From: Tsukamurella sp. M9C
GTDB lineage: Bacteria; Actinomycetota; Actinomycetes; Mycobacteriales; Mycobacteriaceae
Assembly (NCBI RefSeq): GCF_020169415.1
Contig: NZ_JAIULG010000057.1
Coordinates: forward strand, 1-33,476
DNA length: 33,476 nt
Reading direction: 5' to 3'
Below the pieces are notes generated by a model. It had not been told where the DNA came from and did not search any database. It was given only the letters and a program-made list of their open reading frames with translations. Numbering within the stretch: the first letter of the stretch is position 1; each line of letters begins with the position of its first letter. Position numbers and translations under genes: made by a program. Of this stretch, positions 24,024 through 28,538 are shown in pieces.

Positions 24024-24106
24024 TCTGTCGTTTCGCGACGCTATCCAACAAATGCTCTACTATATGCGCATAGCAACGGAGCCGAACAAGCGAGACACGG
24101 GGGATC

Positions 24107-25813
24107 ATGTCCATAATTAACCAAATTCGGGTAACAAACTTTCGCTCCATAAAAGATGCTCAGATATCACCCCTAAGTGGATACGAATCCATCGTAGGCC
24201 TAAACAGCGCCGGGAAATCCAACCTCCTACGCGCTCTCAAGTTGTTCTTTACAGGATCCGTCGACGAAACCGGTTCTGGCCTCGATGTCGACCGGGACTA
24301 TAGCGACTACGGACCGCAGAAGCCCCGACGGATCAAAGTCGGAGTTTCCTTCCCGATCAACAGCGGAATAAAGTTCCCCCGTCAAGCAGACTTCCTCGAA
24401 CGCCAAGGTCTCGTTGACAATTTGGCAATATGTCAGACTTGGTATCGAGACAGCCAGACTCGCGGTATCACGCGGGAGTTCTCGTACGGACAAGATCTTG
24501 ACAACCTAGCACCAGCCACCGACCCGGCAGATATCTCAAGCCTCGAATCCTTTATCCGTTCGATCGAGTTCCGATACGTTCCCAACCACGCACAGCCATC
24601 CGAGCTAATAAGACAATACGTTCAGCCACTCCGTAGCGCGCTGGTAACCAGGCTCCGAAACACGAAAGAGTATCGTTCGAGCGATGTCGGTGAACTTCTC
24701 CTGGCGATGTCCAGGCTTGCAGACACCCTATTTGAGGATGTCGCAACAGCGGTTTCCAAGGGAATCTCAGGACGTACCCTAAAGTCTGCGTTGCCGACCG
24801 ACTTTGCCGACCTTGCATTCGACCTTGCAATCCGTTCGATAGATCCAGACGGACACGCCCGATCCCCCGAGCTGGAAGGCTCAGGGACGCAGCAGTTCAT
24901 GTTTCTCCACCTCCTCAATCTCGCAGATCGAACCGCACGGGGAGCAGGGTTCGGATGGCTACAGGGGCACATTTGGGCCATCGAGGAACCGGAATCGTTT
25001 CTTCATGCTGGCCTGCGCCAAAGATACGCTACAGATCTGTTTGCGTACAGCGACGACCCGCGGCGACAAATATTCCTCACAACTCACCAGGATGAGTTTG
25101 TGCGAGTTGGAGATAGTGCGATCGTCGCAAAAACTTCTGCTGGCGGCACCATCTTCAATCGGCTTACTCCGAAGTTGGCGATCGAACAATCAAATAAGGA
25201 AGCGGTTACAGCATATCGGCACCCTCTCCTTCAGTACTCCGATCAGCCACTCGTTTTAGTGGAGGGCAAGTTTGACGCACAATACATACGACAAGGACTA
25301 GATGCCGCAGGAATCAAGCCTCGCTGGCGCCTCGCCGATCCCGATGACCTAACAGGCGACGCCACTGGAGGCGATGCATTCAAACAGTACCTGCGATACA
25401 ATGGCGCAGCTATCAAGTCCCGACCAGACTCGGCGCCGATCCTGGTTGTCCGCGACTGGGAAACTAGTGACGCAAGTTCCTATCGAACATACCTCAAGGG
25501 TCACCAATACTCGACGGTAGTAACAATGCCGTCAGACCTTTGCACGTCAGAGCTCGGCACCGGTTGGGCGGGAATTGAGCGCTACCTCCCGGTAGACTTC
25601 GTTGAATCAATGGTCCCGGAGGAAGATTTGCTGCGCCGCTCAAACGGCGTGATCGAACCGGAAAAACCTGCACTCAACTCGCACAAGCAAGCAATGGCGA
25701 GGGCGTTCGACATTGCCGAGCACCCCGCCCCAAATTTGGTTTCCTTGGCAAAATGGATCGATGAGCGCGTCACAGAAATGCTGGCAGAAATCCCCACTGA
25801 AGCGTTCTTCTAG
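24107..25813 (+). CDS. OLD-family ATP-dependent nuclease (AAA ATPase + TOPRIM)
   Basis: The 568-residue protein has an SMC/ABC-like ATPase: N-terminal IRVTNFRSIKDAQISPL, Walker A GLNSAGKS (31-38), signature LEGSGTQQ (256-263), Walker B IWAIEEPESFLH (289-300) and H-loop TTHQDEF (325-331). A TOPRIM domain follows, with LVLVEGKFDAQYI (Glu386) and ILVVRDWETSD (Asp450). This is the overcoming-lysogenisation-defect architecture found in phage-defence nucleases, including GajA. No UvrD-like GajB or other known partner is adjacent, so it is a single-gene OLD or part of an unrecognised system. ATG 24107 follows a GGGGG ribosome site. Composition is foreign. Nuclease and defence roles are from family knowledge. 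Confidence 0.92.
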   Translation: MSIINQIRVTNFRSIKDAQISPLSGYESIVGLNSAGKSNLLRALKLFFTGSVDETGSGLDVDRDYSDYGPQKPRRIKVGVSFPINSGIKFPRQADFLERQGLVDNLAICQTWYRDSQTRGITREFSYGQDLDNLAPATDPADISSLESFIRSIEFRYVPNHAQPSELIRQYVQPLRSALVTRLRNTKEYRSSDVGELLLAMSRLADTLFEDVATAVSKGISGRTLKSALPTDFADLAFDLAIRSIDPDGHARSPELEGSGTQQFMFLHLLNLADRTARGAGFGWLQGHIWAIEEPESFLHAGLRQRYATDLFAYSDDPRRQIFLTTHQDEFVRVGDSAIVAKTSAGGTIFNRLTPKLAIEQSNKEAVTAYRHPLLQYSDQPLVLVEGKFDAQYIRQGLDAAGIKPRWRLADPDDLTGDATGGDAFKQYLRYNGAAIKSRPDSAPILVVRDWETSDASSYRTYLKGHQYSTVVTMPSDLCTSELGTGWAGIERYLPVDFVESMVPEEDLLRRSNGVIEPEKPALNSHKQAMARAFDIAEHPAPNLVSLAKWIDERVTEMLAEIPTEAFF

Positions 25814-26192
25814 ACAGCGGAACCCGGTGACTTCCACGAGGATCTCCCCACAGAATCGGGGACAACAACGCCGACCGTATCTGGGAGCTGCAGTTGCTTG
25901 TCCGCGCCATTCTGACGAAAGTCAGCGAATCGAGTCCCGCGCCGCCAGCCGAATGACCGTAGATGAGATCGCGTTCATTCGGGCGGCACGCCGACCCCAC
26001 ACCGTAAGATCAGCCGCCAAGCCAAAGCGACACATTTCGTCAGTCAAGCCGCAGAGCCTGGATCTCCAGTACGCCGACATCGCGCGAATGAATAGCGAAC
26101 CGAACCAATTCCTGTCTTCCGTCACGACGACGACGCCAAGAGCTGAGTCCGAGCCGGAACTCCCACCTGTTAACCAGCTGTTCTGGCGATGA
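25814..26192 (+). other. 379-bp gap in the island: no confident gene
   Basis: This gap holds a weak TCCCC-N8-GGGGA hairpin (25845-25862) that may end the OLD transcript. A short open stretch then reads DNNADRIWELQLLVRAILT to a TGA at 25954-25956, with no start codon I can find. That TGA overlaps an ATG (25953) opening a 79-codon frame (MTVDEIAFIRAARRPHTVRS and so on) to 26192. The ATGA junction looks like coupled genes, but the second frame reads poorly as protein. It may be a decayed gene. Confidence 0.3.
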
Positions 26193-26600
26193 TCAAAAAG
26201 GCGCCTTCCCCCAGGGATCATCTTTGGGCGGCGGAGTGTCACTGATATTCAATTCCGAGAAGATTTCATCCAGCTTGGACTCTACACCTAGATTATTTCG
26301 AGAGGCGCTCGTAAATAGCTCAGCAAGCCCGTAATAGGGTTCGTCCTCGCGAACACCTTCGATCACCGACTCGATTATCCTCCCCGAATCGTCCAGGATA
26401 TCGAGAACAAACGGATACGTCCCATCGCCATCTCGCGAACGCACCCGAAGCGTGCTTCGAGAGAGTGACAATTCGTACGTGTCGCCATCCACAATGTCCC
26501 ATTTATCGGATGGCTCGTCCCCCACACTTTTCGGTCTACTGCGTTCAATCAGGCCCGTGACGAGCCGCTGAATCCGAGCCACAAAATCGTAGTCACTCAT
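26193..26600 (-). CDS. Hypothetical island protein, second gene of an opposed pair
   Basis: The 135-residue soluble protein starts at ATG 26600, overlapping the stop of the upstream gene (ATGA, 26597-26600). I do not recognise it. The middle part (DGDTYELSLSRSTLRVRSRD, YPFVLDILDDSGRIIESVIE) reads as a small beta sheet, followed by helical and acidic segments (YYGLAELFTSASRNNLGVES, LDEIFSELNISDTPPPKDDP). No Cys, signal peptide or membrane segment. Low-GC composition matches the OLD gene. A role with the membrane-anchored partner is implied only by coupling. Confidence 0.7.
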   Translation of the reverse strand: MSDYDFVARIQRLVTGLIERSRPKSVGDEPSDKWDIVDGDTYELSLSRSTLRVRSRDGDGTYPFVLDILDDSGRIIESVIEGVREDEPYYGLAELFTSASRNNLGVESKLDEIFSELNISDTPPPKDDPWGKAPF

Positions 26601-27166
26601 TGAACACTCCCTGAAGAACTTGCAGGCGGACGAATCGGATGCTGAGCAGCGATCTCACCCAGTAGATCTGTTATTTCGGCGATCACGCGTCGCAGGCGAT
26701 CAGTCTCCTTGTTCCAATCGGTGGCGGAACTGAATCCGCCCGCACGTACCTTAAGTGCATTCGAGGCCGTGATCGACTTCTGTATCGCAGTCATCGTCTT
26801 TAGCTGAGTGGGGTCGTTGCCGTCCAGGTACAGGCGGCACGTTTGAGCCTGCCACTTCCAGGTTTGAATAACGTGCGTCAAATACTCAGCAGATTTCAGG
26901 CGAGCTGCTTGATCAAATGCTTGCTCTAGCCTTAGCAATTGGGGTATCAAAGCGATCGCAGCACCAGTCTTGAAATGAGCCACAGCCCCCGATACTGCAC
27001 GTTCAGCGCTCTCCGCCGCAGACTTTACCTTTCGGATCTGCTGAATCGCAATGCAGAACCCGACCGCCGCTAGTGGAATCGCCGCTACCGCGTTCAGCCA
27101 GTTCAACCACCCCCACACGGGGGTGTCGTTCAACCAACGCAAGTCCAAAGTGCCCCCTAGCCGCAA
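26597..27166 (-). CDS. Hypothetical membrane-anchored island protein
   Basis: The 189-residue protein has one N-terminal span (WLNAVAAIPLAAVGFCIAI, about residues 23-41) followed by a long helical cytoplasmic-type part (QQIRKVKSAAESAERAVSGA, LLRLEQAFDQAARLKSAEY, DRLRRVIAEITDLLGEIAA). The longest frame begins at a TTG (27166). A GGGGG run lies just before TTG codons at 27148 and 27142, so the true start may be there. It is translationally coupled to the 135-residue gene. A single-TM helical protein near a nuclease gene is a pattern seen in defence effectors, but no known family is recognised. Confidence 0.7.
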   Translation of the reverse strand: MRLGGTLDLRWLNDTPVWGWLNWLNAVAAIPLAAVGFCIAIQQIRKVKSAAESAERAVSGAVAHFKTGAAIALIPQLLRLEQAFDQAARLKSAEYLTHVIQTWKWQAQTCRLYLDGNDPTQLKTMTAIQKSITASNALKVRAGGFSSATDWNKETDRLRRVIAEITDLLGEIAAQHPIRPPASSSGSVQ

Positions 27167-27283
27167 TCTTGGTACCCATCATCTCACGCAGCAGCAGCGC
27201 AGGTTCGGACGTTCTGGAGGTACCGCCGCGGCGTGCCGGGTTGCTGCTAGTTGGGCGCGGCCAGCCGCCCGCACAGATTGCTT

Positions 27284-27298
27284 GGCAAGCCGCTTGCC
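27284..27298 (-). terminator. Hairpin downstream of the tRNA gene
   Basis: On the minus strand GGCAAG-CGG-CTTGCC forms a perfect 6-bp stem 11 bp past the encoded CCA. No U-run follows; it may be the processing or termination signal of the tRNA. Confidence 0.45.
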
Positions 27299-27308
27299 TG
27301 CGGCGATG

Positions 27309-27385
27309 TGGTGCCCCCGGTGAGACTCGAACTCACACTGGACGGGTTTTGAATCCGTTGCCTCTGCCAATTGGGCTACGGGGGC
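27309..27385 (-). tRNA. tRNA with CAA anticodon (Leu by code) but class I variable loop
   Basis: The 77-nt gene has a perfect 7-bp acceptor stem (GCCCCCG/CGGGGGC), discriminator A, encoded CCA (27309-27311), T-arm GTGAG-TTCGAGT-CTCAC and anticodon loop TTCAAAA giving CAA. The variable region is only about 5 nt, whereas normal tRNA-Leu has a long extra arm. The anticodon stem has an A-C mismatch next to the loop, and the D-stem is only about 3 bp. Bacterial annotation would call it tRNA-Leu(CAA). Its 3' end abuts the low-GC island. Confidence 0.88.
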
Positions 27386-27422
27386 GTCCGGCGGACCGTC
27401 GGAGACGGCCAGCCGAGCCAGC

Positions 27423-28538
27423 TTACCGGGCGGGGTCGGCGGCCTCGGACCCGGCGTCCACGGACGCGAGGAAGGCGTCGATCACGGGCCAGGTCTCGCG
27501 GACGGCGTCGGGGCCGGCGACGAGGCCGAGGTGGCTGGACTCGACGGTCGCGAACTCGACGCGCGGCGAGCCGGTGAACAGGTCCACGCCGTGGCGCGCG
27601 GTCTCCCACGCGCACAGGGCGTCCCGGTGCGAGCCGAAGAGCTGGATCGGCACGTCGATGGAGTGCAGATCGATCGTCCGCTCCCCCAGCTGGACCTCAC
27701 CGGCGGCCAGCTCACCGCGGAAGATCAGCCGCTCCCACAGCTGCGTCGCGAGCTTGCCGGGGTAGCCGGGGAAGGTGCGCTGGAAGCGATCGATGACCTC
27801 CATGCGCGCGAGCTTCTCGGGCTCGCCGAGGTTCTCCAGCACGAACTTGGGCTTCTTGAGCTCCCGGTCCCACGACGTGGCGCGGTAGGCCACCTGCACG
27901 ATCGGCGCGGGGATGCCGCCCATGAGCGCGATCAGCGCACCGGGGCCGAATCCGTCGACCGGCTTCATCAGCGAGGTCACGAGCGGGTACGGCGGCTGCG
28001 CGGCGTACTTCAGCGGCGTCGCGATGGAGACGATCGAGCGGATGGACTCCGTCGACGCCCCGGCGGCGAGGAAGGACAGCGTGCCGCCCAGGCTCCAGCC
28101 GTACAGGTCGACGCCGGCACCGTCGGGCACGTCCCCGCCCCAGAAGTCCTCCAGGGCGCGCGCGATGGCCTGCGGGATGATGTCGAGGGCGAAGTCCTCG
28201 AAGCCGAGACCGCGGTCGCCGTAGCCCATCTCGCCGAAGTCGATGACGTAGGGAACGCGCCCCGTCGACGCGAGGTGCGCGACGACGGACGTCTCGGGCG
28301 AGAGGTCGTAGCAGGTGGCGGGCGCGGCGATCGGCGGCACCAGCAGCACCGGTGCGGCGCCGGGCACGGCGGCCGCGGCACGGTCGGAATCCGAGGCGAA
28401 CCGGCGGAGGGTGCGGTGGTCACCGTCGGCGACGGCGACGTGCGGGGTGCGCTCGACGGGGCGGATGCCCTCCCCCAGAGTCAACGCCCAGAGGTTGCCG
28501 GCGCGCTCGCGCAATTGAGTCAGGCTCAATACGTTCAT
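27423..28538 (-). CDS. PhaC-like alpha/beta hydrolase with Ser nucleophile
   Basis: The 371-residue protein resembles the polyhydroxyalkanoate synthase fold: PVLLVPPIAAPATCYDLSPE, YVIDFGEMGYGDRGLGFEDF, the elbow DLYGWSLGGTLSFLAA, later IQLFGSHRDALCAWE (candidate Asp) and ESSHLGLVAGPDA (candidate His). PHA synthases carry Cys in the elbow; here it is Ser149, as in lipases, so polymer synthesis is doubtful and an esterase or lipid acyl-hydrolase role is more likely. It starts at ATG 28538 and is divergent from pdtaR. Confidence 0.85.
   Translation of the reverse strand: MNVLSLTQLRERAGNLWALTLGEGIRPVERTPHVAVADGDHRTLRRFASDSDRAAAAVPGAAPVLLVPPIAAPATCYDLSPETSVVAHLASTGRVPYVIDFGEMGYGDRGLGFEDFALDIIPQAIARALEDFWGGDVPDGAGVDLYGWSLGGTLSFLAAGASTESIRSIVSIATPLKYAAQPPYPLVTSLMKPVDGFGPGALIALMGGIPAPIVQVAYRATSWDRELKKPKFVLENLGEPEKLARMEVIDRFQRTFPGYPGKLATQLWERLIFRGELAAGEVQLGERTIDLHSIDVPIQLFGSHRDALCAWETARHGVDLFTGSPRVEFATVESSHLGLVAGPDAVRETWPVIDAFLASVDAGSEAADPAR

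What the first reader, a model, noticed from the sequence alone, without database searches (positions are those of the whole stretch)
24030..27190. Low-GC OLD-nuclease island at a tRNA 3' end, with an unassigned opposed gene pair
A compact foreign block holds a complete OLD ATPase/TOPRIM protein and a convergent, translationally coupled pair (single-TM helical protein, then a small soluble protein). No known OLD partner (GajB-type helicase, PARIS AriB) is present. This may be a single-gene OLD beside an unrelated cassette, or a new multi-gene defence system. Presence, composition and coupling are seen; defence is inferred from the family.
Basis: partly seen in the sequence, partly recalled or inferred. 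Interest (0 to 1): 0.75.

Follow-up and report, generated by a model that had tools for sequence, protein, structure and literature searches.

The report
OLD nuclease beside unrelated two-gene cassette
A small foreign DNA block beside a tRNA gene in an actinobacterium carries a stand-alone nuclease that resembles known anti-phage proteins, and next to it a separate, uncharacterised two-gene unit that other bacteria carry without that nuclease.

Summary
The block is real: about 3.2 kb (24041 to ~27269), 55% GC in a 71% GC contig, on the 3' side of tRNA-Leu(CAA), in a site that is hypervariable in the genus. The OLD gene is confirmed as ABC ATPase plus TOPRIM, with DxD replaced by a conserved D-W-E. 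The opposed pair is confirmed as a translationally coupled unit (one-helix membrane protein, then small soluble protein). The proposed three-gene system is not supported: four other genomes with this OLD lack the pair in the stretches examined, and six other genomes with the membrane protein lack the OLD there; in five of those six the small gene follows directly. So two independent low-GC cargo modules share one site. Most likely the OLD acts alone as a class 1 type defence nuclease. The window's pair matches nothing convincing in Pfam, NCBIfam, PHROGs or PADLOC. In one further genome the small gene precedes a SIR2-type defence gene instead of the membrane-protein gene, which hints at a shared small regulator or sensor with exchangeable effectors.

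The parts
24041..27269 (.). Low-GC variable block between conserved flanks (junctions approximate)
   Evidence: GC 55.1 vs 71.1%; homology of genus relatives stops at 24040 at the latest on the left and resumes at 27270-27311 on the right
24107..25813 (+). OLD-family ATPase-TOPRIM protein, 568 aa; Walker A 31-39, Walker B 289-296, VEGKFD 385-390, D450-W-E452, K520
   Evidence: Pfam AAA_15 and AAA_21 above cut-off; invariant residues; profile alignment to a Vibrio ATPase-TOPRIM protein E 5.5e-13 and to P2 Old E 1.4e-6
26597..27166 (-). First gene of the pair: helical protein with one N-terminal membrane helix, 189 aa (start TTG 27166; TTG 27148 or GTG 27118 also possible)
   Evidence: ORF; hydropathy; found by a profile built without it, E 2.2e-24
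26193..26600 (-). Second gene of the pair: small soluble protein, 135 aa, start overlaps the stop of the first gene (ATGA)
   Evidence: ORF; overlap; found by a profile built without it, E 1.5e-11
27309..27385 (-). tRNA-Leu(CAA), whose 3' end faces the block
   Evidence: ARAGORN, Rfam RF00005
22669..23976 (+). Left flank: ketoacyl-synthase-like gene (name by eye)
   Evidence: Matched in 16 of 16 genus genomes
27423..28538 (-). Right flank: hydrolase-like gene (name by eye)
   Evidence: 81% identical in genus-mate G234, beside the same tRNA

Best explanation
The block is variable cargo at a tRNA-Leu(CAA) site and holds two modules that move independently. Module 1 is a single-gene OLD nuclease of a rare actinobacterial subfamily; by analogy with class 1 OLD proteins its ATPase domain would sense a sign of infection and license the TOPRIM domain to cut nucleic acid, stopping phage growth, perhaps by stopping the cell (inferred). 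Module 2 is a translationally coupled pair: a membrane-anchored helical protein and a small soluble protein. Fixed order, tight coupling and repeated occurrence as a roughly 0.9-kb low-GC cassette show that the two belong together (strong inference). The most likely job is a two-component defence or abortive-infection unit in which the small protein holds or triggers an effector: here the membrane protein, in one other genome a SIR2-type protein (weak inference).
For: OLD: Pfam, invariant motifs, profile alignment through both TOPRIM motifs and to P2 Old; its relatives stand beside integrases in L021 and L022, in L022 also near a tRNA-Val, and beside a weak Rep_1 match in L020. Pair: small gene directly downstream in 6 of 7 membrane-protein loci, window included, spacing from a 14-nt overlap to a 15-nt gap; no such hits in 23 control loci (best E 0.44); leave-out profiles. 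Integrase in the L008 locus (59.9 bits). Small gene 22 nt upstream of a SIR2-type gene in L041 (PADLOC E 1.9e-10). Separation of OLD and pair. Hypervariable site in the genus.
Against: No defence activity is shown for any part. The SIR2 link is one case. L007 has the membrane-protein gene without a detectable small gene. None of the neighbours of the pair that I scanned in L007, L008, L010 and L024 (9 proteins) matched PADLOC beyond one weak hit (NsnC, E 0.0043). The pair has no relative in the phage, plasmid or viral-contig collections searched. In the published YbjD case the TOPRIM domain was dispensable for the anti-phage effect (PMC13261556, first of two parts read).
Confidence: 0.55

Rival explanations
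1. All three genes form one new OLD-based multi-gene defence system, with the pair as regulator or membrane effector of the OLD.
For: The genes lie side by side in one foreign block with similar GC and codon-position GC.
Against: 0 of 4 other OLD loci hold the pair and 0 of 7 other pair-family loci hold the OLD; the genes converge with a 379-nt gap, so they are not one operon. Numbers are small and each locus was seen only as a stretch.
Confidence: 0.06
2. The pair is a toxin-antitoxin unit that stabilises mobile DNA, not a phage-defence unit; the membrane protein would be the toxin and the small protein its antidote.
For: Two small coupled genes on mobile-looking DNA, next to an integrase in L008; no known defence domain in the window's pair.
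Against: In L041 the small gene stands before a SIR2-type gene, a type listed among defence effectors; no toxin or antitoxin family matched beyond chance level (best E 0.027 in one of seven).
Confidence: 0.25
3. The block is a decaying remnant of an integrated element and the genes are no longer used.
For: No integrase ORF and no copy of the tRNA 3' end at the left junction, while four genus relatives keep 27-55 nt partial tRNA copies near the site; the OLD relative in L013 has its start in another frame.
Against: All three window frames are intact, and OLD motifs and full-length similarity are kept.
Confidence: 0.12

Closest known systems
Class 1 OLD nucleases (P2 Old; Thermus scotoductus OLD, PDB 6p74; E. 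coli YbjD)
   Same: Single gene, N-terminal ABC ATPase and C-terminal TOPRIM; 6p74 is the best PDB match (E 3.8e-7 with the profile, ATPase part only); profile alignment to P2 Old over residues 4-396.
   Different: D-W-E instead of DxD; very distant in sequence; lies next to a second gene cassette; function untested.
Gabija (GajA/GajB)
   Same: GajA is an OLD protein; weak match to the ATPase part (E 1.9e-6).
   Different: No GajB-type helicase gene in the block.
PARIS (AriA/AriB, also as a single-gene fusion)
   Same: AAA_15/AAA_21-type ATPase; the best PADLOC score is an AriA model (3e-18), carried by the generic ATPase motifs.
   Different: No DUF4435 match up to E 1.
P2 old-tin cargo locus
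   Same: An OLD gene beside a second, different exclusion gene in a cargo hotspot of about 1-5 kb (PMC9122126, passages seen).
   Different: P2 old and tin are on one transcript (old-tin mRNA); here OLD and pair converge, and the site is beside a chromosomal tRNA.
SIR2-type defence operons
   Same: In L041 the small-family gene is directly upstream of a SIR2-type gene.
   Different: The window's partner is a membrane protein with no SIR2 match.

Membership tests
Class 1 OLD nuclease | N-terminal ABC ATPase with Walker A and B | tested here: met
   AAA_15 63.4 bits and AAA_21 52.9 bits, both above cut-off; motifs invariant in four sequences
Class 1 OLD nuclease | C-terminal TOPRIM with acidic metal-binding residues | tested here: met
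   Profile alignment puts VEGKFD on VEGETD and RDWE on LDYD of a protein noted as ATPase-TOPRIM; the second acid of DxD is E, so a variant; no structure could be made
Class 1 OLD nuclease | Single gene without OLD partner gene | tested here: met
   No shared neighbour of the pair type in four relatives' loci; in the window the neighbouring cassette is convergent and separable
Class 1 OLD nuclease | Nuclease and anti-phage activity | not testable with these tools
   needs experiment
Gabija | Adjacent UvrD-like helicase GajB | tested here: not met
   No such gene among the ORFs of the block or directly beside it (by reading the ORF list)
PARIS | DUF4435 (AriB) domain, separate or fused | tested here: not met
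   No DUF4435 match for any of the three proteins up to E 1
Retron with OLD (class 3) | Reverse transcriptase and retron RNA | tested here: not met
   No reverse transcriptase among the block's ORFs (by reading); no retron RNA at Rfam gathering threshold
tRNA-integrated genomic island | Foreign composition next to a tRNA 3' end, absent in relatives | tested here: met
tRNA-integrated genomic island | Own integrase and duplicated tRNA end | tested here: not met
   No repeat of any 13-mer of 27241-27390 elsewhere in the window; no integrase ORF or match in the block
Known two-gene defence or toxin-antitoxin family (for the pair) | Match of either protein to a described family | tested here: not met
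   Window proteins: no match better than E 0.04 in four libraries. Relatives: best PADLOC LeoBC, one of seven membrane proteins, E 0.0015

The most novel reading that the evidence does not exclude
The small protein is the shared sensor or regulator of a not yet described modular actinobacterial defence family. It is translated next to exchangeable effectors, a one-helix membrane protein in six genomes and a SIR2-type protein in a seventh, carried as low-GC cassettes of about 0.9-1.4 kb on mobile DNA. Independently, the OLD belongs to a subfamily that uses a D-W-E metal motif.
Probability: 0.3. Interest if true: 0.65.

Novelty: new variant of a known kind. Interest (0 to 1): 0.45.

Why it matters
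The OLD gives a natural single-gene case for an open question: can a bacterial class 1 OLD defend alone? (Raised in the review PMC10568477, passages seen.) The pair is an unassigned, recurrent, mobile two-gene family; if the small protein works with different effectors, its profile would be a handle for finding further defence units. The tRNA-Leu(CAA) site is a small cargo hotspot of one actinobacterial genus that can be mined.

Tried and rejected
Three-gene OLD system: rejected on co-occurrence. PARIS fusion: no DUF4435. Retron or other RNA: only the tRNA reached Rfam's threshold. Relict integrase in the 379-nt gap: four ORFs there gave no Pfam match better than E 0.055. Promoter and terminator scan: no promoter-like site and one terminator-like site, both below the shuffled means, uninformative. 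SSB-like C-terminus: 3 of 7 small proteins end in PF (window, L024, L025), one as DDGLPF; 4 of 7 do not, so no claim is made. PDB search with the pair profiles gave only scattered, implausible hits (best E 0.0022 and 0.071).

Searches without relatives: viral contigs with the membrane protein, the OLD alignment, four small proteins and the SIR2-type protein; plasmids and phages with pair proteins. In plasmids the OLD gave one distant partial hit (E 6e-11); in phages none at 1e-10 and 21 records at E <= 1, most short.

Rows dropped before counting: membrane-protein profile hits L017, L018, L019 (E 2.8e-5, 2.7e-4, 1e-3; matches to part of the model, no small-family hit in the locus) and small-profile hit L071 (E 0.005). 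The single-sequence search with the window's small protein found only the window among 298 order genomes, so the small family rests on profiles. L009 and L010 were first included by position and eye; profiles built without them then found both (L009 E 1.1e-9 to 9e-16, L010 the weakest, E 1.1e-4 to 6.5e-7).

Papers: search listings only; passages for PMC10568477, PMC12137116 (a reference-list passage of no use) and PMC9122126; the first of two parts of PMC13261556. 'Tsukamurella' was a guess of mine at the genus from recall, not a result.

Full report
Observation. The window is one whole contig (C63, 33,476 bp) of a 4.73 Mb assembly. Between a ketoacyl-synthase-like gene and tRNA-Leu(CAA) lies a block of about 3.2 kb at 55.1% GC; the rest of the window is 71.1%, and no other 3240-bp stretch falls below 67.9%. 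The names of the flanking genes are mine, by eye.

The site. The ketoacyl-synthase-like gene is matched in 16 of 16 genomes of the genus, the window's included. I fetched one such region from each of the 15 others, choosing the copy by hand where two close ones exist. On the left, homology to the window ends at 24040 in three of them (L053, L054, L062), at 24033 in one and at about the end of the gene in the rest; on the right it resumes at 27270-27311 where the tRNA is within reach. A complete tRNA-Leu(CAA) was found near the gene in 5 of 15 (L055, L056, L062, L063, and G234 through L038), with intervals of roughly 2.6 to 10.5 kb and differing content. Partial 27-55 nt copies of the tRNA end were found in 4 (L057, L058, L059, L064; the 27-nt one in L057 is weak evidence). 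In 6 neither was in the stretch, one of them only 2.3 kb long. G234 has a weak integrase match beside the tRNA (24.8 bits, under the Pfam cut-off of 27.1). So the site is hypervariable cargo space. Among 16 genus genomes the OLD (E <= 1e-10) and the membrane-protein gene (E <= 0.001) are found only in the window's own.

The OLD. Pfam AAA_15 and AAA_21 are above cut-off. A scan of 84,980 species genomes found four relatives: an uncultured actinobacterium (75%), Lentzea atacamensis (49%), Actinomycetospora termitidis (40%) and Amycolatopsis saalfeldensis (47%); it works from two short peptide patterns and is not exhaustive. In the order sample 2 of 298 genomes matched at E <= 1e-30, one being the window's own. 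VEGxxD, D-W-E and K520 are invariant in five sequences, Walker A in the four that cover it. Profile comparison aligns residues 6-455 with a Vibrio prophage protein noted as ATPase-TOPRIM, putting VEGKFD on VEGETD and RDWE on LDYD (E 5.5e-13), and residues 4-396 with P2 Old (E 1.4e-6). The PDB sequence search reaches only the ATPase part. Two of the four relatives have a tyrosine-integrase match nearby (L021, L022), one of these also a tRNA-Val, and one has a weak Rep_1 match (L020). In all four the OLD gene is lower in GC than its flanks. It looks like a mobile single-gene OLD.

The pair. Neither window protein matches a family better than E 0.04 in Pfam, PADLOC, NCBIfam or PHROGs. Among relatives the best is PADLOC LeoBC for one of seven membrane proteins, E 0.0015 (the small family was checked in Pfam, PHROGs and NCBIfam). 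Membrane-protein relatives were found in 5 of 298 order genomes and 6 of 394 class genomes, the window counted in both; three weak class hits were dropped. That leaves seven loci: the window, L007, L008, L009, L010, L024, L025. The small gene lies directly downstream in 6 of 7; L007 is the exception. L024 and L025 were independent tests: they were fetched for the membrane protein alone, and a small-family profile made before found the small gene in both (E 1.4e-14 and 3.8e-22). Spacing runs from a 14-nt overlap to a 15-nt gap (starts are my choice). A control of 23 loci and 3,472 frames gave no hit better than E 0.44. Profiles built without a member recover the window, L008, L009, L010 and L041. 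From the other side, small-family hits were 4 of 296 class genomes (window, two known pairs, one weak hit dropped) and 2 of 346 phylum genomes (window and L041). The five other complete pairs span 904-955 bp and are lower in GC than their flanks, L010 only slightly. L008 has an integrase nearby.

The SIR2 link. In L041 (genome G707) the small gene is followed after 22 nt by a gene matching PADLOC SIR2 models (E 1.9e-10) and weakly Pfam SIR2_2 (19.5 bits, cut-off 24.5). The membrane-protein profile found nothing in this locus. Two tRNA genes lie next to it, and a gene that looks like a phage terminase lies a few kb away, by eye only. This is one case.

Separation. The OLD profile finds nothing in the seven other pair-family loci at E <= 1, and the pair profiles find nothing of weight in the four OLD loci; L020 has only 350 bp on one side. 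With convergent orientation and a 379-nt gap, a joint operon is excluded. The numbers are small and a loose link cannot be ruled out, but the simplest account is two cargo modules in one site, comparable to old and tin in phage P2 (PMC9122126 passages).

Function. Shown: genes, motifs, coupling, signs of mobility, separation. Inferred: the OLD acts as a class 1 type defence nuclease, from family and setting. The literature seen is mixed on mechanism: PMC13261556 (first of two parts) reports that the anti-phage effect of YbjD did not need its Toprim domain, and cites others for P2 Old cleaving a host tRNA and for isolated class 1 OLDs occurring in 0.45% of bacterial genomes. Weakly inferred: the pair is a two-component effector unit. 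Two word searches turned up no paper whose listing described such a pair, but words are a poor way to find a nameless family, and I do not claim that it is unpublished.

Noticed in passing
window 27108-27125: A perfect inverted repeat (7-nt arms, 4-nt spacer, CACCCCC/GGGGGTG) lies over the start region of the membrane-protein gene; the true start may be TTG 27166, TTG 27148 or GTG 27118.
   Followed up: partly
L041 4662-6057: Small-family gene directly upstream of a SIR2-type gene, beside tRNA-Val and tRNA-Cys, with a terminase-like gene (by eye) a few kb away.
   Followed up: partly
L007 5351-6664: Membrane-protein-family gene without a detectable small partner, preceded by another gene for a protein with an N-terminal hydrophobic helix (by eye) that matched no Pfam family.
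   Followed up: partly
L013 7250-8970: In the Amycolatopsis relative the start of the OLD gene is in a different frame from the rest, so the gene is broken or the sequence has an error there.
   Followed up: no
L057, L058, L059, L064: Partial 27-55 nt copies of the tRNA-Leu 3' part beside the same site in genus relatives, suggesting past integrations of larger elements.
   Followed up: partly
L074 1310-3067 (Vibrio phage 10N.286.55.C3_PE001): A single OLD-type gene stands directly after an integrase gene at the end of a tailless-phage-like prophage record.
   Followed up: no
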